Below are positions 44,894-54,894 of a DNA stretch of 64,000 bases, piece after piece (the first letter of the stretch is position 1; each line of letters starts with the position of its first letter). A program made the position numbers and the translations under genes. Location of the stretch: assembly GCA_036489315.1 (NCBI GenBank), contig DASXFZ010000022.1, positions 62,001-126,000 of the forward strand, given 5' to 3'. Origin of the DNA: Candidatus Cybelea sp. (lineage in GTDB: Bacteria; Vulcanimicrobiota; Vulcanimicrobiia; Vulcanimicrobiales; Vulcanimicrobiaceae). The notes under the pieces are model-generated. The model made no database searches. It worked only from the letters and a program-made list of their open reading frames with translations, and was not told the DNA's origin.

Positions 44894-45718
44894 ACGCGCA
44901 TCTTAGTCACCAACGACGACGGCATCGACTCACCCGGCATCCTCGCGCTCGCCGACGCGCTGCGCGGGGAGCACTCCGTGATCGTCGTCGCGCCCGCGGG
45001 AGACCGCAGCGGCGTCTCGCACGCGATCACCGCCGACGAAGCGATAACGATGGCGCGGCGGGAAGGCTGGGCAGTACCGTCCTACGCGTGCTCGGGAACG
45101 CCCGCCGACTGTGTTTTCTTGGGCGCAACGGTGCTCGCGGAGCGGCCCCAGCTCGTCGTAAGCGGTATCAACCATGGACCGAATCTCGCCGACGACGTCA
45201 ACTACTCCGGTACGGTTGCCGGCGCCGTGGAGGCCTGCCTGCTGGGAATTCCCGCGCTTGCCGTCTCGCTGGCGGCCGATCACGAAGAACCGCTGGCGCA
45301 GCGTCACTGGCGCAGCGGCGCGCTCATCGCATTGCGCTGCATCGAACGCGTGGCCGCTGCGGGTGAGAACCCGAGTTGCTACTGGAACTTGAACGTTCCC
45401 AATCTCCCGCTCGAAGAGATCGGCGGAATCCGCGTTACACGGCTCGGCCGTAAACGCATTTGCGGCCGGATGATCGGCGAGGAGCATGGGGGCGCAACGC
45501 GCTACTATCGTGCCTGGGAGTCGCCCTTCGCGACGGATCGAGAAACGACCGGAACCGACATCGGCGCCGTCGACGCCGGTTACGCGAGTCTGACGCCGCT
45601 TTTGCTCGATCGGACCTCGCCGTCGGTTTTGCGCGAGTCGGCGGATTTCGCGGAAGGACGCGGCGGCAGCCTACGCCCCGCAAACTCGGCGATCCGTTCC
45701 AACTTGCGCATTAACTGA
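44894..45718 (+). CDS. surE: 5'/3'-nucleotidase SurE
   Basis: Survival protein E, a metal-dependent nucleoside monophosphatase. The frame reads RILVTNDDGIDSPG with the metal-binding Asp pair at the N terminus, then SGTPADCV, SGINHGPNLADDVNYSGTV, all diagnostic. About 274 residues. There is no ATG, GTG, TTG or CTG between the msrB stop (44881) and this motif; the codon in the usual Met position is ACG at 44894. The later GTG at 44978 would delete the catalytic Asp residues. Its last 139 nt overlap the convergent DAHP synthase gene. Confidence 0.88.
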   Translation, partial: TRILVTNDDGIDSPGILALADALRGEHSVIVVAPAGDRSGVSHAITADEAITMARREGWAVPSYACSGTPADCVFLGATVLAERPQLVVSGINHGPNLADDVNYSGTVAGAVEACLLGIPALAVSLAADHEEPLAQRHWRSGALIALRCIERVAAAGENPSCYWNLNVPNLPLEEIGGIRVTRLGRKRICGRMIGEEHGGATRYYRAWESPFATDRETTGTDIGAVDAGYASLTPLLLDRTSPSVLRESADFAEGRGGSLRPANSAIRSNLRIN

Positions 45719-46539
45719 TCGAACTGTTCGCAGTCGAGCGATTGCGCGCCGTCCGATAGGGCGTTGGGCGGATCGGGGTGGACCTCGATCAGCAGCCCGT
45801 GTGCGCCGGCAGCGATGCTCGCGATCGCAATCGGCGGGACCAGCCGCGCGATCCCCACGGCGTGCGAAGGATCGACGATCACCGGCAGGTGCGTCATCTC
45901 TTCGAGCAGCGGCACCACCGAGATGTCGAGCAGATTGCGCGTCGCCACGTCGAAGGAGCGCACTCCGCGTTCGCAGAGCACGACGCTCTCGTTGCCGCCG
46001 AGCATCACGTACTCGGCCGCGAGAAGCCATTCTTGAACCGTCGCGGAGAGGCCGCGCTTGAGCAGCACAGGCGTCCTCGTCGCGCCGACTTCACGCAGCA
46101 GCGGAAAGTTTTGCATGTTGCGAGTGCCGATCTGCAGCATGTCGGCGTAGCCGGCCACCTTCTCGACATCGCGTGGATCGAGGACCTCCGTTACGACGCC
46201 GAGGCCATGGCGATCCCCGGCCTCGCGCAGCATCTTCAGAGCCTTTTCACCCAGACCCTGAAATGAGTAGGGAGAGGTTCGCGGCTTGTAGGCGCCGCCG
46301 CGCAAAACATTCGCGCCCGCGGCCGCTACTGCGCGCGCAGCCTGCTCGAGCTGTTCCTCCGACTCGACGCCGCACGGCCCGGCGCAGATCGTGACCTCCT
46401 CGCCTCCGAAGGTCGCCCCGCTGCGCAGCCGCACGATCGTGCGCTGCGCGCGCGCGTCCCGGCGGACCAGCCGGTACGATTGCGGTACGTTTACCCCTCG
46501 CTCCACCTCTCTCGCTTCGACGGCTCTCCCGCTCATCAT
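45580..46539 (-). CDS. aroF: 3-deoxy-7-phosphoheptulonate (DAHP) synthase, class I-beta
   Basis: 319 residues. Condenses phosphoenolpyruvate and erythrose-4-phosphate, the entry step of the shikimate pathway. Motifs in order: CAGPCGVES, GGAYKPRTSPYSFQG, IGTRNMQN, PVLLKRG, VIVDPSHAVG. The N terminus (about 48 residues) is too short for a full ferredoxin-like regulatory domain, so feedback control may be weak. ATG 46539 or 46536 is the start. It is divergent, with 53 bp, from the condensing enzyme that heads the cyclohexanecarboxylate-like operon and could be a dedicated shikimate supplier. Confidence 0.92.
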   Translation of the reverse strand: MMSGRAVEAREVERGVNVPQSYRLVRRDARAQRTIVRLRSGATFGGEEVTICAGPCGVESEEQLEQAARAVAAAGANVLRGGAYKPRTSPYSFQGLGEKALKMLREAGDRHGLGVVTEVLDPRDVEKVAGYADMLQIGTRNMQNFPLLREVGATRTPVLLKRGLSATVQEWLLAAEYVMLGGNESVVLCERGVRSFDVATRNLLDISVVPLLEEMTHLPVIVDPSHAVGIARLVPPIAIASIAAGAHGLLIEVHPDPPNALSDGAQSLDCEQFDQLMRKLERIAEFAGRRLPPRPSAKSADSRKTDGEVRSSKSGVRLA

Positions 46540-46592
46540 GCCCGGAGCGCTCCAGCAGGCCAGGTCGCGTCGGCTCCCGCAAATCACGCGCG

Positions 46593-47807
46593 GTGGAGCA
46601 TGTTGCGGTAACCGGAGTAGGGGTCGTCTCGCCCATCGGCACCGGGGCACACGACTTTTGGCGAAGCCTTCTCATCGGCAAGCGTGCAGTCGGCCCGATG
46701 CGCTCGCCGCTCCCGAGGCTCTCGGGAAATCGATTCTGGGCGGCGGTCCCCGACAGTTTTCTCGCACCCAACGCGCTCGATGCGACCGTCCTGCGCAATA
46801 CCGACCGCTTCACACAGTACGCACTAATCGCCACGGCGCAAGCGATGGAAGGCGCTCGCCTCGATGCGCCGCCCTCTCGCACCGGTGTCATCATCGGTAA
46901 TACGATGGGCGGCTTTCCGCTCGTCGCCGAGGCTCAGACACGGCTGCTCGAGTCGGGGGGCCGCAACGTGACTCCGAAACTCATGGCGCTGGTCATACCG
47001 AATATGCCAAGCGCGCTGATCGCAATGCGCTGGAAGCTTCACGGACCACAACTCGCAATCAGCACGGCGTGCGCATCTTCACTCGACGCGATCGGCCTGG
47101 CGGCCGGGATGATCGAGCGCGGCGAGATCGACGCCGCAGTCGCCGGGGGGACCGAAACGCTGCTGAGCCCGCTGGTTTACGAAAGCCTCGTACGTGCCGG
47201 CGCGCTCTCGCGCAATTCCGACGCGACGCTCGCGTCGCGCCCGTTCGACGTCGACCGCGACGGATTCGTAATGGGCGACGGCGCGGCGGTCGTTGTTTTG
47301 GAGCGGCTCGAGCGGGCGGATCGGCGCGGCGCGCACGTGCTCGCGCGCATTCGCGGGTACGGTTCGCTGGCCGACGCCCACCACATCACCTCGCCCGATC
47401 CATCGGCCCGCTTCGAAGTCCAGACGATGCGCGACGCAATGGATTCCGCGCAGGAAGCCGGTGAAAGCTGCGACGTCGTCTACGCCCACGCGACCGGGAC
47501 GATCGTCGGCGACGCTGCCGAAGCAACGGCGATCGACGCAGCGTTCGCAAATCGGCGGCCGGTTGTAACCTCGATCAAAGGACACGTCGGCCACAGCATG
47601 GCCAGCGCCGGGGCTATGTGCGTCGTCGCGGGCATCGCGGGAATGCACGAATCGCAGATTCCCCCGACGATGGGAACCAAACGAATCGATCCCGCCGCGC
47701 GCTTCGACTTGGTGATCGGGGAGCCGCGAGCGCGCGCCTACTCTGCCTTTCAAGTGAACGCGTTCGGCTTCGGCGGTCAAAACGCGTCGCTGGTCGTCTC
47801 TCGATGA
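46593..47807 (+). CDS. 3-oxoacyl-ACP synthase II-like condensing enzyme
   Basis: 404 residues, GTG start. KAS I/II-type catalytic triad: C160 in STACASS, H299 in AHATGT, H334 in KGHVGH, with K329. Condenses an acyl group with malonyl-ACP. It is first in the operon with the AroA-ligase fusion and reductases, so it may extend a cyclohexanecarboxyl starter, or act in a related polyketide or fatty acid step. No acyl carrier protein or KAS III is in the window. An ordinary housekeeping FabF role cannot be excluded, but the location is unusual for it. Confidence 0.88.
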   Translation: MEHVAVTGVGVVSPIGTGAHDFWRSLLIGKRAVGPMRSPLPRLSGNRFWAAVPDSFLAPNALDATVLRNTDRFTQYALIATAQAMEGARLDAPPSRTGVIIGNTMGGFPLVAEAQTRLLESGGRNVTPKLMALVIPNMPSALIAMRWKLHGPQLAISTACASSLDAIGLAAGMIERGEIDAAVAGGTETLLSPLVYESLVRAGALSRNSDATLASRPFDVDRDGFVMGDGAAVVVLERLERADRRGAHVLARIRGYGSLADAHHITSPDPSARFEVQTMRDAMDSAQEAGESCDVVYAHATGTIVGDAAEATAIDAAFANRRPVVTSIKGHVGHSMASAGAMCVVAGIAGMHESQIPPTMGTKRIDPAARFDLVIGEPRARAYSAFQVNAFGFGGQNASLVVSR

Positions 47808-47871: not shown

Positions 47872-50800
47872 ATGAATCTACTCGTCAAAGGAACGAGCGG
47901 GCCGCTGACCGGTGAGGTCGAGGTACCGAACTCGAAATATCACGCGCACCGGGCGCTCATTCTGGCATCGCTCGCGCCGGGAACGAGCCGGATACTCGGG
48001 CTTTCCGACGCTCGCCACGTGCAGTTCACGATGGACGTGCTGCGGGCGTTAGGGACGAAGATCGAAGTCGAAGGGCAAACGCTGCTCGTCTCCGGCGGCC
48101 CGTATCGCGTGAAGCGCAAGGTCGTTTCAGTCGGCAGCTCCGGCTCGACGCTCTACTTCATGATCGGCTTGGCATCCCTGGCCGACTCGCCGGTAACGTT
48201 GACGGCACAGAAGTACTTCCGCCGCCGTCCGGTGGGACCGCTGCTCGATGCGCTCGCGCAGCTGGGCGTTCGCTTCGAATCCGCCGCCGGCTGTCCACCG
48301 ATTGCGATCTCGCCGAGCCGGCCGCGGGGCGGGACGATCGTCATCCCGGGCACGCTCTCTCAATGGATATCCGGAGTGTTGCTGCTGGCTCCCTTCGCGA
48401 CGCAATCCACGACGATCGAAGTCGAAGGCGAGCTCAACGAACGCCCGTACATCGCGCTGACCGTCGAGATGATGCGCGCTTTCAATCTTCACGTCCGCAT
48501 CTCGCCGGATTGGCGACGCTTCGACGTCGAGCCGGGCCAGGAGGCGCGCCCCGCGACCGTCGCGCTGCCGCCGGATATCGGCTCGGCGGCCTTTGGGCTC
48601 GCGGTCACCGCACTCCATCCCTCCGACGTGCTCTTTCGCGGACTGCAAGAGCTCCCGGGTGAGCTTCCCGACCACCCCGAGGGGGCGTTTATGGAGATCG
48701 TTCGGGAAATGGGCCTCCCGATCGAATACGACACGCACGCCCACGCGGTGCGCGTGCGCCACGACGGAATCGAATTGCGGGGCGTGCGCGTCGACTGCCG
48801 CGACATTCCCGACATGCTGCCGATCCTCTCGACGCTCGGTACGTTCGCGAAAGGGCAGACGGTGCTCGAGAACATCGCACACGTCCGCCTCAAAGAGTCG
48901 GATCGCGTCGCGGCGATGCTGCAGCTCAACCGCATGGGCGGACACCTCGAGCTCCACGACGACCGGCTGGTGGCGCACGGCGTTTCGCAGCTTTTCGGAG
49001 CCCACCTGTCGTCGTTCAACGATCACCGGATTCTGATGTCGCTGGCGGTCGCGGCCTCGCGCGCGGAGGGTCAGAGCACGCTGACGTACCCAAACGCGTA
49101 CCGGATCTCGTATCCGCGCTTTCTCGACGCGATGCGCAGCATCGGCGTTGCGATGGCGACGTCGGACACCCCCGCGAACGCCCGCCTCGCGGGCGGCAAG
49201 AACGCACCCGCGATCCCGAAACCCGACCGTGCTGCCGCGCTGACGATCAACGAGCTGCTCAATCGCAACGCAAAAGAGTCGCCCGTCGGCCTCGCCGTCG
49301 TCGAAACCCGCGAAGGAAGTGACGTCGCCCTTACGTGGGAAGAGCTGCTCGAACGCGTCGAACGCACGGCGACCCTGCTGCTCAACCTCGGCGTGCGCTA
49401 CGGTGAACGCGTCGCCTATCAACTGCCCAACCAGCTGGAGTTCGTCATCATCTCCTTGGCGGTGCTGCGCATCGGCGCGGTCTGCTGCCCGTTGATGCCG
49501 ATCTTTCGTGAGCGCGAAATTGCGTTCTGCCTGCGGCGGTCGCGCGCGCGCGTCCTGTTCGTACCCGATGAGGCGCGCGGGCGCCGGCACGCCGGCGAGG
49601 TTGCTTCGATGCTCGGGGAGACGCGCGTCTTCAGCGGGGACCTTCCGCTGCGGCTCGAGCACGTCGTCGTCTGCGCCGGCGGCCGCAAGCCGTACGCGTT
49701 ACCCGTGCAAGAGTACGACGACGAATCGGTTCACTGGCTACGCTATCAGGATGCACTGCGAACGACTCAGATTGACCGGGCCGCGCTCGACGCGCGGGTC
49801 AGCGATCCTCGGGCGATCGCGCAGCTGCTGTTTACGTCCGGTACGTCGGGTGAACCAAAAGGCGTACTGCACCGTAACGACGTCCTCATGCGCGCCGCCG
49901 CGATGGAAGTCGAGCACCTGGGCCTCGGAGCGCAAGACCGGATCTTCATCCCCTCGCCGCTCGCGCACCAGACCGGCTTTCTCTACGGCATGTGGCTCGC
50001 GCTCGTGATGGGCGTCGCGCAGATCGTTCAGCCGGTCTGGAATGCATCGCGCGCGCTGCGCGCGCTCAACGATTGGGACGGGACCTTCGTGCAGGCGGCA
50101 ACGCCGTTTTTGGCGGACCTCCTGCACGCCGTCGAAAGCGGAGAGCGCGCGCCGGCGGCCTTGAGAATCTTCGTCGCGACCGGTGCCGCCGTGCCGCGGG
50201 GCATGGCCGAACGCGCGACGCGCGTTCTCGGCACCGCAGTCTGCGGCGCTTGGGGTACCACCGAATCGTGTCTGGGATCGCTCGCGGCTCCTACCGACGA
50301 GCCGGCGAAGGTCTGGGGAACCGACGGCCGCGCCTTGCGCGGAATCGAGTTGCGCATCACCGACGCGCAAGGGCGCAGGCTCCCGGCCGGTCAGGAAGGG
50401 CACTTCGAGGTGCACTCGCCGACGATGTTCGTCGGCTACGCCGATCATCCCGAATGGACGGCCGCCGCCTATACGCCCGACGGGTGGTTCAAGACCGGCG
50501 ATCTCGGAATCATCGACGAAGCCGGATACATCCGGATCACCGGACGCGTGCGCGACGTCATCAATCGCGGCGGCGAAAAAATTCCGGTCGCGGAGATGGA
50601 ACAGCTGTTGAGCGACCATCCGGCGATCGCGGAGATCGCCATCGTCGCCATGCCCGATCCGCGTCTCGGCGAGCGCGCCTGTGCATTCGCCGCGCTGCAT
50701 GAGGGATCTCGCTTTGACTTCGATCAGATGCAGCACTATCTGTACGCCTGCCAAGCCTCCAAGCACTATTGGCCCGAACGTCTCGAGATCGTCGACGCGC

Positions 50801-50898
50801 TGCCCCGCACCCCGTCGGGTAAGGTGCAGAAATATCTGCTTCGCGAGCGCGCGCGCGAGCTGCGAGCCTACGAGCGCGACAAGGCGAACGTTTCTTGA
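47872..50898 (+). CDS. Fusion of EPSP-synthase-like (AroA) domain with acyl-CoA ligase
   Basis: 1,008 residues in one frame; ribosome-binding site GAGGTAGGA. Residues 1 to about 427 are AroA-like: K22, R27, R119, Q164, D314, K341, E342, R345, H385, R386 match E. coli EPSPS residues, but S23 is Tyr, N94 is Ser and K411 is Ile. Residues about 455-1008 are an AMP-forming ligase: P-loop TSGTSGEPKG (655-664), GAWGTTE (792-798), GDLG with D877, and K984 in PSGKVQK. The ligase resembles cyclohexanecarboxylate-CoA ligases. I infer that it activates shikimate or a derivative as a CoA thioester. The linker (428-454) is short and Ala/Pro-rich. The stop overlaps the next gene. Confidence 0.88.
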   Translation: MNLLVKGTSGPLTGEVEVPNSKYHAHRALILASLAPGTSRILGLSDARHVQFTMDVLRALGTKIEVEGQTLLVSGGPYRVKRKVVSVGSSGSTLYFMIGLASLADSPVTLTAQKYFRRRPVGPLLDALAQLGVRFESAAGCPPIAISPSRPRGGTIVIPGTLSQWISGVLLLAPFATQSTTIEVEGELNERPYIALTVEMMRAFNLHVRISPDWRRFDVEPGQEARPATVALPPDIGSAAFGLAVTALHPSDVLFRGLQELPGELPDHPEGAFMEIVREMGLPIEYDTHAHAVRVRHDGIELRGVRVDCRDIPDMLPILSTLGTFAKGQTVLENIAHVRLKESDRVAAMLQLNRMGGHLELHDDRLVAHGVSQLFGAHLSSFNDHRILMSLAVAASRAEGQSTLTYPNAYRISYPRFLDAMRSIGVAMATSDTPANARLAGGKNAPAIPKPDRAAALTINELLNRNAKESPVGLAVVETREGSDVALTWEELLERVERTATLLLNLGVRYGERVAYQLPNQLEFVIISLAVLRIGAVCCPLMPIFREREIAFCLRRSRARVLFVPDEARGRRHAGEVASMLGETRVFSGDLPLRLEHVVVCAGGRKPYALPVQEYDDESVHWLRYQDALRTTQIDRAALDARVSDPRAIAQLLFTSGTSGEPKGVLHRNDVLMRAAAMEVEHLGLGAQDRIFIPSPLAHQTGFLYGMWLALVMGVAQIVQPVWNASRALRALNDWDGTFVQAATPFLADLLHAVESGERAPAALRIFVATGAAVPRGMAERATRVLGTAVCGAWGTTESCLGSLAAPTDEPAKVWGTDGRALRGIELRITDAQGRRLPAGQEGHFEVHSPTMFVGYADHPEWTAAAYTPDGWFKTGDLGIIDEAGYIRITGRVRDVINRGGEKIPVAEMEQLLSDHPAIAEIAIVAMPDPRLGERACAFAALHEGSRFDFDQMQHYLYACQASKHYWPERLEIVDALPRTPSGKVQKYLLRERARELRAYERDKANVS

Positions 50899-52070
50899 AG
50901 CAGCTCGACGCAGCGCCCGCGTTCGACGACGCCTCGTTCGCCGCGCTTCGCGACGAGATCGCGCTTTACGTCGCCGGCCGCGGGGAAGAATGGGCGCAGC
51001 GCATCGAGCGTGACCGGCACGTCCCGCTCGAACTTTGGGACGAACTGCGCAACCGAGGCTTCCTTTCGCTGGCGGCGCCGGTCGAGTACGGAGGCCGGGG
51101 CATTCCGTTCTCGCGTTATCTCGAGCTCATCGAGCTTTTTTCGATGTCACACGCTTCGATTCGCATGATCGTTCACGTCGTCAACGGCACGTGGCGTGCG
51201 ATGGACCGGTTCGCGACGGCGCAGCAGCGCCAGTCCTTCATTCTGCCATCGATCCAAGGCGAGCTGAAAGTCGCCTTCACCTTGACCGAGCCGACGGCGG
51301 GGACGGGAGCCGACCTTCGCTGCAGCGTCGAGCGCGAGGGCGATACGTACTACCTTAGCGGCGAAAAGCACCTGATCACGTTCGGAACGATCTGCGACTA
51401 CTGGCTGCTCTTCGCGCGGCTTGCGGGAACGCGCGGCGCCGAAGGAACCGTCGCATTGCTCGTCGACCGCCGCTCGCCGGGCGCGCGGGTCGTCGAGATG
51501 GACGAGTCGATGGGCGTTCGCGGAACGGATCACGGGCAGCTGTCCTTCGAGCGGACCCCCGTTCCCGTTGCGAACCGGCTGGGAGCGGAGGGACAAGGTT
51601 TGGATATCGCGCTCGGCGGTTTTCTGACGCCAAGCCGGATCTCGGTCGCCATGAGCTGCGTCGGCCTCGCGCGACGGGCGCAGGAGCTCGCCATCGAGTA
51701 CGCGCGCAAGCGGGAAACCTTCGGCAAAAAGCTCGCGCAGCGGCAGGCGATCCGCTTCATGATCGCCGAGAACGCGACCGATATCGAGGCGGCACGGCAA
51801 CTCGTGCTGCACGCGGCTCGGCAATGGGAGGGCGGGAGCGGCGAGGCCACGATGCTATCGTCGATGTCGAAGCTGCAGGCCGTCGACATGCTGACGCGCG
51901 TGACCGATCGAGCGCTGCAAATTCATGGCGGCAGCGGGTTTTGGCAGCCCCACGCGATCGAGCGAGTCTACCGCGACGCGCGCGCGCAGCGATTCGAAGA
52001 GGGCACCAACGAAATTCAAAAAACCGTCATCGCCCGCGAGCTGCTCGGTTCCGGAGGGGAGAGCGCATGA
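50895..52070 (+). CDS. Acyl-CoA dehydrogenase-family flavoprotein
   Basis: 391 residues, TTG start overlapping the fusion gene stop (TTGA). FAD-binding segments [13 protein letters not shown] and the C-terminal [16 protein letters not shown], with E369 at the catalytic-base position. In the ansatrienin pathway an enzyme of this family acts in shikimate-derived cyclohexanecarboxyl-CoA formation, as I recall as an unusual dehydratase; this gene occupies the same genetic context. A simple 2,3-desaturase is the alternative. The next gene overlaps by ATGA. Confidence 0.88.
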
Positions 52071-52870
52071 ACCGTCGTTTCGAAGGAAAGGTTGCGCTGG
52101 TGACCGGGAGTTCGCGCGGGATCGGCCGCGCGCTCGCGCTAACGCTCGCGCGCGACGGCGCGACGCTGGTCATCAACTACAATCGCAACGCGCAGCTCGC
52201 GCAGGAAGCGGTAGCGGAAATCGAGGCGCTGGGTACGCGCGCGATCGCGGTCCAAGCCAATATGGAGGAGCCCGAGCAGATCGAGCGCCTCTTCGAGAGC
52301 GTGCACGGCGAATACGGCCGTCTCGATCATTTCGTGTCCAACGCAGCGGCCAGCTCGTTCAAGAAAATCCAGGAGCTAAAAGCTCACAATCTCGACCGGT
52401 CGTACGCGCTCAACGTGCGGGCCTTCGTGCTGGGCGCGCAGCGCGCGATCGAGCTGATGAACGACGGCGGACGCATCGTGGCGCTCTCGAGCTACGGCAG
52501 CATGCGAGCCTATCCGACGTATGCAAATCTCGGCTCGAACAAAGCCGCGGTCGAAGCCTGGGTTCGCTACATGGCCGTTGAGTTCGCGCCGCGCGGCATC
52601 AACGTCAACGCGGTCAACGGCGGCCTCATCGACACCGAGTCGTGTGCCTACTTTTATGAGAACGTCGCGGGAATGGCTCCGATCGAAGGCGTGCTCTCCA
52701 AGATCCCAAAGGCGCGGATGGGCACGCCGCAGGAGGTTGCCGACACGATCGCGTTCCTGCTCGCGCCCGAATCGGAGTACATCACCGGGCAAACGATCTG
52801 CGTCGACGGGGGCCTGAGCGTAATCGCCCCGCCCTTCTTCGCAGATACGTCACCGCCGCTCTCGCTTTAG
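52067..52870 (+). CDS. SDR-family enoyl reductase (FabL/ChcA-like)
   Basis: 267 residues. NAD(P) motif TGSSRGIG (13-20), NAAA at 92-95, and an active site YANLGSNK, that is Y152-x6-K159. The YX6K spacing is that of enoyl-ACP/CoA reductases such as FabL, in contrast to YX3K ketoreductases. The C terminus [14 protein letters not shown] is also FabL-like. In context it is the best candidate for the 1-cyclohexenylcarbonyl-CoA reductase (ChcA) step. Coupled to the dehydrogenase gene by ATGA. Confidence 0.87.
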
Positions 52871-52887: not shown

Positions 52888-54894
52888 TTGTTCGAGCACG
52901 CGCTCGAGGCCGGATCGATCGGCACGCTGCGGCTTGCAAATCGCATCGTGATGGGTTCGATGCACCTCGGCATCGAGTCGGACGGCAAGGCACTTGCCGC
53001 CTTTTATGCGCAGCGCGCCGCCGGCGGCGCCGGGCTCATCGTGACCGGCGGCTCGTGCGTCAATTTAGCCGGAGCCGGCGGACGAAACTATAGCTTCATC
53101 AACGATCCGGCTTCGCACGGGCCGTTGCTGCAAGCGGTCGAAGCGGTGCACCGCGCGGGCGGGCGCATCGCGCTTCAGCTTTTCCACGCCGGGCGCTACG
53201 CCTATCGGTCGTCGTTCGGCATCCAACCGGTTGCGCCGTCCGCGATACCGTCACGCTTCTCTCCCGATCCGCCGCGCGCGCTGAGCGACGCCGAGATACT
53301 CGAGACGATCGGCGACTTCGCCCAGGGCGCTACGCGCGCGCGCGAACTCGGATTCGACGCCGTCGAGGTGATGGCGTCCGAAGGCTATCTGCTCAATCAG
53401 TTTCTCTCACCGCTAACGAACCGGCGCGACGACGCATGGGGCGGAGACTTTTTCCGGCGCATGCGCTTCCCGCGGGAGGTCCTGCGCGCGATCCGCAGCG
53501 CTGCCGGCAGCACGTATCCAGTCATCTTTCGCATTTCGGGCACCGACTTGATGGCCGGATCGACGACCCCCGCGCAGACCCTCGAGTTCGCGCGCGCCCT
53601 GAACAGTGACGGCGTCGACGCACTTAACGTCGGCATCGGCTGGCACGAGTCGTCGATCCCGACCGTCCAGCAGATGGTTCCAAGCGGTACCTGGATACGC
53701 TTTGCGGCACGCGTCAAATGCGCCACTGCGGAGTTGCCGGTCATCGCCAGCAATCGCATCAACGACTTAGCTGCGGCGAATGCCGTCATCGCAGCGGGAA
53801 GCGCGGACTTCGTTTCGATGGCACGTCCGTTTCTGTCCGACGCGCGCATCGTCGCCAAGTCCGCCGCCGGTCGAGCGGCCTTGGTCAATACCTGCATTGC
53901 GTGCAATCAAGCCTGCATCGACCGGTCGCTAATCGACGCTCCGGTCTCGTGCATGGTCAACCCCCGTGCCGCGCACGAACTCGAGTTTCCCGAGCGGGCA
54001 GCGCAGGATTCGCAGCGGCGGCGTTTTGCCGTGATCGGCGGGGGACCGGCGGGCATGGAGAGCGCGCGCGCGCTCGCCGCTCTCGGACATGAAGTCGTCC
54101 TCTTCGAAGCCGAACCGGAGCTTGGCGGACAGTTCCGTATGGCGCGACGCATCCCGGGCAAAGGGGACTTCAACGAAACGCTTCGCTATTACGCGAACGA
54201 GCTCGCGCGGCTGGGCGTTGAAATACGCTTGGGCGAACGCTGCCGCGACGCTCGCGCGCTCAAAGGGTTCGCGGGACTGATCCTCGCGGCCGGAGTCGTA
54301 CCGCGGCGGATAACGCTCCGGGGCAGCGACCTTCCGCACGTCATCAACTACGCCGATCTCCTGCTCGGCAACGCCGACGCCGGGCCGCGAGTGGCAATCG
54401 TCGGGGCCGGCGGAATCGGGGTCGACGTCGCACACTACCTGAGCTTCGGAGAGACCGGCGCCTCCGAAAGCACGCGCTTTCTCTACGAGCAGAGTTTGGC
54501 CGCGCTCGAAGACGGAACGCTGATCGTCACCGGACGAAAGCAAGTCGCGCTGCTTCGGCGCGGGCGCCCGATCGGCCAGCACATCGGCAAGACGACGCGC
54601 TGGGCGGTCCTTGCGGCGCTGCGCGCCGCCGGTGTCGACAGCTTCGTCAATGTCGAATACGACGCGATCGTCCCGGGAGGCATTCGTTTTCGCGACGCCG
54701 ATGGGATCGCTCGCTTCGTCGAGGCCGACAGCGTCGTGATCGCCGCCGGCCAAGAACGCAACGATTCGCTGTTGCCCGAGATCCAGCGGCTCGGAGTTCC
54801 ATATCGCGTCGTCGGCGGCGCAAAAGAGGCAACGGAGCTGGACGCGGTACGCGCCTTCGACGAGGGACTGCGCGCCGCGTACGAGCTGGGCTAG
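52888..54894 (+). CDS. 2,4-dienoyl-CoA reductase-like FMN/4Fe-4S/FAD enzyme
   Basis: 668 residues, TTG start, 17 bp after the SDR gene. Residues about 1-330 are an old-yellow-enzyme barrel with Y167 and H253 at the catalytic positions of FadH; a 4Fe-4S site is formed by C336, C339, C343 and C355; residues about 378-665 hold the FAD/NADPH part (GGGPAG at 384-389). It would reduce conjugated dienoyl-CoA intermediates, as expected when shikimate-derived dienes are reduced. An AnsM-type protein has the same place in the ansatrienin set. The stop TAG is the first triplet of the following inverted repeat. Confidence 0.9.
   Translation: MFEHALEAGSIGTLRLANRIVMGSMHLGIESDGKALAAFYAQRAAGGAGLIVTGGSCVNLAGAGGRNYSFINDPASHGPLLQAVEAVHRAGGRIALQLFHAGRYAYRSSFGIQPVAPSAIPSRFSPDPPRALSDAEILETIGDFAQGATRARELGFDAVEVMASEGYLLNQFLSPLTNRRDDAWGGDFFRRMRFPREVLRAIRSAAGSTYPVIFRISGTDLMAGSTTPAQTLEFARALNSDGVDALNVGIGWHESSIPTVQQMVPSGTWIRFAARVKCATAELPVIASNRINDLAAANAVIAAGSADFVSMARPFLSDARIVAKSAAGRAALVNTCIACNQACIDRSLIDAPVSCMVNPRAAHELEFPERAAQDSQRRRFAVIGGGPAGMESARALAALGHEVVLFEAEPELGGQFRMARRIPGKGDFNETLRYYANELARLGVEIRLGERCRDARALKGFAGLILAAGVVPRRITLRGSDLPHVINYADLLLGNADAGPRVAIVGAGGIGVDVAHYLSFGETGASESTRFLYEQSLAALEDGTLIVTGRKQVALLRRGRPIGQHIGKTTRWAVLAALRAAGVDSFVNVEYDAIVPGGIRFRDADGIARFVEADSVVIAAGQERNDSLLPEIQRLGVPYRVVGGAKEATELDAVRAFDEGLRAAYELG

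What the first reader, a model, noticed from the sequence alone, without database searches (positions are those of the whole stretch)
47872..50898. AroA-like domain fused to an AMP-forming acyl-CoA ligase
One uninterrupted 1,008-codon frame joins a full AroA-like domain (about 1-427) to a complete ligase (about 455-1008), with no internal stop or ribosome-binding site. Established: AroA and CoA ligases are normally separate. Inference: the fusion channels a shikimate derivative between ligation and the AroA-like step, which also ties the unclear AroA-homologue to the CoA pathway. I know of no characterised enzyme with this architecture.
Basis: partly seen in the sequence, partly recalled or inferred. 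Interest (0 to 1): 0.85.

Follow-up and report, generated by a model that had tools for sequence, protein, structure and literature searches.

The report
Shikimate-to-cyclohexane starter enzyme fusion
The fused gene is real and widely conserved, but it is a member of a known type: the AroA-like/CoA-ligase protein (PlmJK type) that opens the pathway turning shikimate into cyclohexanecarboxyl-CoA, found here in an almost uncultured phylum with no polyketide synthase, where it probably primes cyclohexyl fatty acids.

Summary
ORF 47872-50898 encodes one 1,008-aa protein with a full EPSP-synthase-fold domain (9-421) and a complete AMP-forming ligase (465-984), joined by a disordered linker. It is no assembly error: the same join occurs in 16 of 17 same-genus Eremiobacterota genomes, in 2 of 4 of a neighbouring family, and in about 3% of sampled Streptomyces. 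It is also not new. The gene order fusion / acyl-CoA dehydrogenase / SDR enoyl reductase / FMN oxidoreductase matches plmJK-plmL-chcA-plmM, the phoslactomycin module for cyclohexanecarboxyl-CoA (CHC-CoA). In Streptomyces rishiriensis it lies in an AHBA-ansamycin (ansatrienin-type) cluster. Rubrobacteraceae and a Solirubrobacteraceae genome keep the two halves as adjacent separate genes.

New here: the module occurs in Eremiobacterota with a dedicated FabF-like condensing enzyme, beside the genome's only detected DAHP synthase and without a detected modular polyketide synthase, which points to omega-cyclohexyl fatty acids. The AroA-like domain has lost conserved contacts to the shikimate 3-phosphate (R100Y, S197E; also S23Y, S169L, D49H, E. 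coli numbering) in all members, fused or split, and every genome checked has a separate canonical AroA. It is probably not an EPSP synthase. Its reaction, and channelling, remain untested.

The parts
47872..50898 (+). AroA-like / AMP-forming CoA ligase fusion (PlmJK type), 1,008 aa
   Evidence: one ORF; Pfam domains; conserved fused in the genus, a neighbouring family and Streptomyces
47896..49134 (+). AroA-like (EPSP-synthase fold) domain, residues 9-421
   Evidence: PF00275 277 bits; family-wide changes S23Y, D49H, R100Y, S169L, S197E with K22, R124, D313, E341 kept
49168..49203 (+). disordered linker, residues 433-444
   Evidence: pLDDT below 50; variable in length and sequence in the alignment
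49264..50823 (+). AMP-forming acyl-CoA ligase domain, residues 465-984
   Evidence: PF00501 and PF13193; best NCBIfam hit cyclohexanecarboxylate-CoA ligase TIGR03208, 463 bits, below its 792-bit cut-off; motifs TSGTSGEPKG (655), INRGGEK (897), GKVQK (983)
46593..47807 (+). FabF-like beta-ketoacyl synthase, first gene of the probable operon in Eremiobacterota
   Evidence: PF00109/PF02801; conserved upstream of the fusion in the Eremiobacterota loci whose upstream sequence is held; Cys-His-His residues kept; 35% identical to the genome's other FabF
50895..52070 (+). acyl-CoA dehydrogenase (PlmL position)
   Evidence: PF00441/02770/02771; overlaps the fusion by 4 bp; 65-67% identical in Streptomyces at the same position; Glu369 in EEGTNEIQ
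52067..52870 (+). SDR enoyl reductase (ChcA position)
   Evidence: best hit FabL enoyl reductase and its structure 3oic; Y-x6-K motif YANLGSNK; 4-bp overlap with the previous gene
52888..54894 (+). FMN/FAD oxidoreductase of the OYE / 2,4-dienoyl-CoA reductase type (PlmM position)
   Evidence: PF00724 + PF07992; same position in Streptomyces at 50-55%
45580..46650 (-). DAHP synthase, divergent neighbour; only PF00793 hit in the genome
   Evidence: PF00793 255 bits; single hit in the genome; conserved neighbour in Eremiobacterota loci

Best explanation
The gene is a PlmJK-type bifunctional enzyme at the head of a cyclohexanecarboxyl-CoA (CHC-CoA) biosynthetic operon. The ligase half activates shikimate, or a shikimate-derived carboxylic acid, to a CoA thioester. 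The AroA-like half binds the non-phosphorylated shikimate ring and helps remove its hydroxyls, most likely as a dehydration step using the retained acid/base residues D313 and E341. The acyl-CoA dehydrogenase, the FabL/ChcA-like SDR and the FMN oxidoreductase then complete the dehydration and enoyl reductions to CHC-CoA. In this organism, which has no detected modular polyketide synthase, CHC-CoA most likely primes omega-cyclohexyl fatty acids, with the FabF-like synthase next door assisting elongation or priming. Shown: fusion, domain content, operon-like arrangement, conservation, altered pocket, separate canonical AroA, no detected modular PKS in this genome. Inferred: pathway product, order of steps, the AroA-like reaction, lipid destination.
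For: Order fusion-ACAD-SDR-OYE is conserved from Eremiobacterota to Streptomyces and matches plmJK-plmL-chcA-plmM of phoslactomycin (PMC5852498). The S. rishiriensis copy lies beside AHBA synthase (631 bits to the RifK structure 1b9i) and a PKS with an AMP-binding loading domain; labelled shikimate efficiently labels the cyclohexanecarboxylic moiety of ansatrienin (PMC8788734). The best ligase model is cyclohexanecarboxylate-CoA ligase. The SDR has the enoyl-reductase Y-x6-K motif. The AroA-like domain forms one clade apart from canonical AroAs (100/100) and lacks 3-phosphate anchors (anchors listed in PMC12256929); all genomes checked carry a canonical AroA too. Own genome: FabH in a fab cluster, no PKS-type KS hits; the only PF00793 DAHP synthase adjoins the operon.
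Against: No biochemistry or lipid data exist for this lineage. The cultured Eremiobacterota Vulcanimicrobium alpinum has iso-C14 fatty acids and no cyclohexyl ones were reported (PMC9758169); whether it carries this operon was not tested. PlmJK itself could not be compared by sequence, and the table that gives its place calls it only 'AMP-dependent synthetase and ligase'. A dehydratase role for the AroA-like half is inference from residues alone; most PEP-contact residues are retained.
Confidence: 0.8

Rival explanations
1. The AroA-like domain is still a carboxyvinyl transferase: it transfers enolpyruvyl from PEP to non-phosphorylated shikimate or shikimoyl-CoA to create a leaving group, and the ligase supplies or follows with the thioester.
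For: K22, R124, Q171, D313, E341, R344, H385 and R386 are retained in all 15 family members, and the domain scores above the aroA equivalog cut-off (315 vs 287 bits).
Against: D49, a PEP-phosphate contact in PMC12256929 and invariant in the canonical AroAs aligned here, is His in the family; K411 is Ile, though the genome's own AroA also lacks it.
Confidence: 0.2
2. The operon degrades cyclohexanecarboxylate (ali/bad type) rather than making it.
For: The ligase is about 40% identical to AliA proteins on plasmids and its best model is the degradative ligase TIGR03208; the ACAD hits cyclohexanecarbonyl-CoA dehydrogenase models weakly.
Against: Ligase and ACAD score far below both equivalog cut-offs. 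The five genes of the operon include no BadK, BadH or BadI type hydratase, hydroxyacyl dehydrogenase or ring hydrolase. An AroA-like domain has no role in that pathway, and the order matches biosynthetic clusters.
Confidence: 0.07
3. The AroA-like half is a non-catalytic or structural remnant, and only the ligase works.
For: Several substrate contacts are lost.
Against: The domain is kept complete and intact with the same substitutions and retained D313/E341 in fused and split forms across two phyla, which indicates selection for a distinct function.
Confidence: 0.1
4. CHC-CoA in this organism primes a small polyketide or polyene instead of membrane fatty acids.
For: In some Streptomyces the module is followed by a KAS gene; the genome holds a type III PKS-like protein elsewhere (L092).
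Against: PF00109 finds only one other FabF-type KAS and two thiolase-like hits in the genome.
Confidence: 0.25

Closest known systems
PlmJK of phoslactomycin (PnP1, LmP1 in S. platensis and Streptomyces sp. ACT232), CHC-CoA starter module plmJK-plmL-chcA-plmM
   Same: gene order and gene types; the position of the fused gene; the name JK suggests a fusion
   Different: polyketide cluster in Streptomyces; here no modular PKS was found, a FabF-like KAS precedes the fusion and a DAHP synthase adjoins it.
CHC module in AHBA-ansamycin (ansatrienin/mycotrienin-type) clusters, e.g. S. rishiriensis (L051, L086, L087)
   Same: full-length fusion at 61% identity, then ACAD, SDR and OYE in the same order
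   Different: presumably feeds an antibiotic side chain in that lineage; regulators and PKS genes flank it
EPSP synthase (AroA)
   Same: fold (TM-score up to 0.87 to solved EPSPS over the domain), catalytic K22, D313, E341
   Different: 3-phosphate contacts R100 and S197 replaced, S23, S169 and D49 changed; fused to a ligase; the genome has another AroA
Cyclohexanecarboxylate-CoA ligase AliA (TIGR03208)
   Same: closest ligase model and about 40% identity
   Different: below the equivalog cut-off; degradative context in AliA
Unfused AroA-like and ligase pair of Rubrobacteraceae (L054/L090) and Solirubrobacteraceae (L049)
   Same: same two proteins at 49-53% identity, followed by the ACAD (and, in L054, the SDR), same pocket changes
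   Different: two adjacent or overlapping genes instead of one

Membership tests
CHC-CoA biosynthesis module (PlmJK/PlmL/ChcA/PlmM type) | ligase-AroA gene followed by acyl-CoA dehydrogenase, SDR enoyl reductase and FMN oxidoreductase | tested here: met
CHC-CoA biosynthesis module (PlmJK/PlmL/ChcA/PlmM type) | orthologous fused gene within a natural-product cluster whose product carries a shikimate-derived cyclohexane ring | tested here: inconclusive
   S. rishiriensis fused gene lies near AHBA synthase and a PKS, and the ansatrienin ring derives from shikimate; that this cluster makes ansatrienin is inferred from its genes.
CHC-CoA biosynthesis module (PlmJK/PlmL/ChcA/PlmM type) | sequence identity to PlmJK itself | not testable with these tools
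CHC-CoA biosynthesis module (PlmJK/PlmL/ChcA/PlmM type) | conversion of shikimate to CHC-CoA | not testable with these tools
   needs enzymology
EPSP synthase (AroA) | aroA equivalog model above cut-off | tested here: met
   TIGR01356 315.3 bits vs 287.25
EPSP synthase (AroA) | shikimate 3-phosphate anchor residues R100 and S197 (E. coli numbering) | tested here: not met
   Tyr and Glu in all 15 family members; Arg and Ser in all canonical AroAs aligned; anchors from PMC12256929
EPSP synthase (AroA) | is the genome's housekeeping copy | tested here: not met
   separate canonical AroA in the own genome and in seven other genomes
Cyclohexanecarboxylate-CoA ligase (AliA, TIGR03208) | equivalog score above 792 bits | tested here: not met
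   462.7 bits
AMP-forming acyl-CoA ligase superfamily (ANL) | both AMP-binding subdomains and core motifs | tested here: met
omega-cyclohexyl fatty acid producers | omega-cyclohexyl fatty acids in lipids | not testable with these tools
   no culture or lipid data for this genus; Alicyclobacillus genomes could not be reached

The most novel reading that the evidence does not exclude
The AroA-like half is an EPSP-synthase-fold enzyme that has become a PEP-independent dehydratase of non-phosphorylated shikimate or shikimoyl-CoA, and the Eremiobacterota operon is a dedicated membrane-lipid version of an antibiotic starter-unit pathway, giving omega-cyclohexyl lipids in a nearly uncultured soil phylum.
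Probability: 0.3. Interest if true: 0.7.

Novelty: new member of a known kind. Interest (0 to 1): 0.42.

Why it matters
It assigns an otherwise odd gene fusion in a nearly uncultured phylum to a specific pathway and makes a checkable lipid prediction (omega-cyclohexyl fatty acids). It also shows that the antibiotic starter-unit pathway exists outside polyketide clusters, in fused and split forms, and it gives a precise residue-level hypothesis for the AroA homologue of CHC-CoA biosynthesis: it should not use shikimate-3-phosphate.

Tried and rejected
Assembly artefact: rejected, the fusion recurs in independent genomes. Housekeeping AroA fused by accident: rejected, each genome checked has another canonical AroA. 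CHC degradation operon: judged unlikely. PKS product: no PKS-type KS found in the genome. Loss of K411 as evidence against PEP binding: dropped, because the genome's own AroA lacks it too. An alignment of the operon KAS to the genome's FabF used a wrong reading frame; replaced. Literature: primary papers on PlmJK and asukamycin are not held and none on the S. collinus CHC genes was found; full-text searches gave only the phoslactomycin gene table and reviews. Alicyclobacillus, the classic omega-cyclohexyl producer, could not be searched by name; it did not appear in the GTDB scan, but that scan finds close relatives only.

Full report
OBSERVATION. The frame at 47872-50898 is open for 1,008 codons. 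Pfam finds EPSP_synthase at residues 9-421, AMP-binding at 465-856 and AMP-binding_C at 908-984. No start codon with a plausible ribosome-binding site lies at the junction. The fused protein is present in 16 of 17 genomes of the same genus at 75-86% identity (the one without is 68% complete; one has a frameshift at residue 595 and a few are cut by contig ends). It is in 2 of 4 genomes of a second family of the order, and in none of the 19 other genomes of its own family. In the GTDB collection it occurs in further Eremiobacterota MAGs and in Streptomyces isolates at about 60%. In a sample of 393 Streptomyces genomes, 10 hold it full length; an eleventh holds it in two pieces and a twelfth has a truncated copy with a stop. 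Chance and assembly error are excluded.

NEIGHBOURHOOD. The genes KAS (46593-47807), fusion, acyl-CoA dehydrogenase (50895-52070), SDR (52067-52870) and OYE-type flavin oxidoreductase (52888-54894) lie on one strand with gaps of 64, -4, -4 and 17 bp: a probable operon. The same order recurs in the Eremiobacterota loci. The Streptomyces loci have the same order from the fusion onward, without the KAS upstream. The last four match plmJK, plmL, chcA, plmM in the phoslactomycin/lactomycin gene table, described there as genes for the cyclohexanecarboxyl-CoA starter (PMC5852498). The SDR is closest to FabL and has the enoyl-reductase Y-x6-K motif. PlmM is described as a flavin-dependent enoylreductase in CHC-CoA assembly (PMC12593393).

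KNOWN CLUSTER CONTEXT. In S. rishiriensis the fused gene lies within 25 kb of an AHBA synthase (631 bits to solved RifK), a dehydroquinate-synthase-like protein and a PKS with an AMP-binding loading domain. Two further Streptomyces genomes show a similar arrangement with over 90% identity of the AHBA synthase and loading domain. Ansatrienin is an AHBA ansamycin with a cyclohexanoyl-alanyl side chain, and labelled shikimate efficiently labels its cyclohexanecarboxylic moiety (PMC8788734). The assignment of these clusters to ansatrienin/mycotrienin is my inference. From memory, not verified here: the S. collinus ansJ-M/chcA genes (Cropp 2000), PlmJK (Palaniappan 2003), and a later report of a shikimoyl-CoA synthetase and a FAD-dependent dehydratase in CHC-CoA biosynthesis.

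SPLIT FORMS. In Rubrobacteraceae (L054/L090) the AroA-like gene ends a few bases inside the start of the ligase gene (ATGCCTGA), and in a Solirubrobacteraceae MAG (L049) the two genes are a few bases apart. A sample of 396 Actinomycetota genomes found the pair as separate frames in the genomes that hold both. The AroA-like domains form one clade, 100/100, apart from canonical AroAs. The fused forms group together with weak support (69/27), so a single fusion event is possible but not shown.

AROA-LIKE DOMAIN. Against E. coli AroA and eight other canonical AroAs, all 15 family members keep K22, R27, R124, Q171, D313, K340, E341, R344, D384, H385 and R386, but have S23Y, D49H, N94S, R100Y, S169L and S197E. 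In tobacco EPSPS the S3P phosphate is held by Lys358, Arg105, Ser206 and the Ser179 backbone (PMC12256929); I take these as E. coli K340, R100, S197 and S170 from the offsets of the numbering. Two of the three side-chain anchors are gone, one replaced by an acidic residue. The genome has a separate canonical AroA with the normal residues, as have the seven other genomes checked. So although the domain passes the aroA equivalog cut-off, it is unlikely to be an EPSP synthase. A non-phosphorylated shikimate substrate fits the pathway; the exact reaction is inferred.

STRUCTURE. AlphaFold2 with 18 family sequences gives mean pLDDT 80, pTM 0.51 and a linker (433-444) below 50. Foldseek matches EPSP synthases (TM up to 0.87 on the target) and ANL ligases; none of the 50 top hits listed spans both domains. 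Relative domain placement is not determined, so channelling is neither supported nor excluded.

DESTINATION. In the window's genome PF00109 hits one other FabF-type KAS and two weak thiolase-like sites, and the strong FabH hit lies next to fab-type genes, so CHC-CoA probably enters fatty acid synthesis. The single PF00793 DAHP synthase of the genome is the divergent neighbour of the operon; PF01474 was not searched. The operon KAS is 35% identical to the genome's other FabF, so it is a diverged paralogue. Vulcanimicrobium alpinum, the cultured Eremiobacterota, has iso-branched C13-C14 acids as its major fatty acids and no cyclohexyl acid is mentioned (PMC9758169); whether it carries the operon was not tested.

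VERDICT. Real, conserved and informative, but a member of a known kind: the PlmJK-type first protein of CHC-CoA biosynthesis. New are its occurrence in Eremiobacterota with a dedicated KAS and without a detected modular PKS, the split relatives, and the specific residue changes that argue against S3P as substrate.

Noticed in passing
45580-46650 (-): The only PF00793 DAHP synthase found in the genome is the divergent neighbour of the CHC operon, conserved beside it in other Eremiobacterota loci.
   Followed up: partly
L092 (G000:C10, about 181 kb): A 359-aa type III PKS-like (chalcone synthase family) protein is encoded elsewhere in the genome; it could also use unusual CoA starters. The assignment is by eye plus a PF08541 hit.
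   Followed up: no
L128, L129 (G434:C6): One Streptomyces genome has a second fused copy without the ACAD/SDR/OYE genes beside it, near a modular PKS and a large regulator.
   Followed up: partly
L132, L133 (G255); L126, L127 (G434); L122 (G075): Several Streptomyces CHC modules are followed by a FabF-like KAS gene, and in G255 the OYE gene is missing from that position.
   Followed up: partly
L109 (G161:C6): A Streptomyces genome has a truncated AroA-like piece (residues 1-339) with an internal TGA, possibly a decaying copy.
   Followed up: no
L055, L056, L057: Standalone AroAs of Methanomassiliicoccales and a euryarchaeal MAG are the nearest canonical AroAs to this family in the tree (93/88, long branches).
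   Followed up: partly
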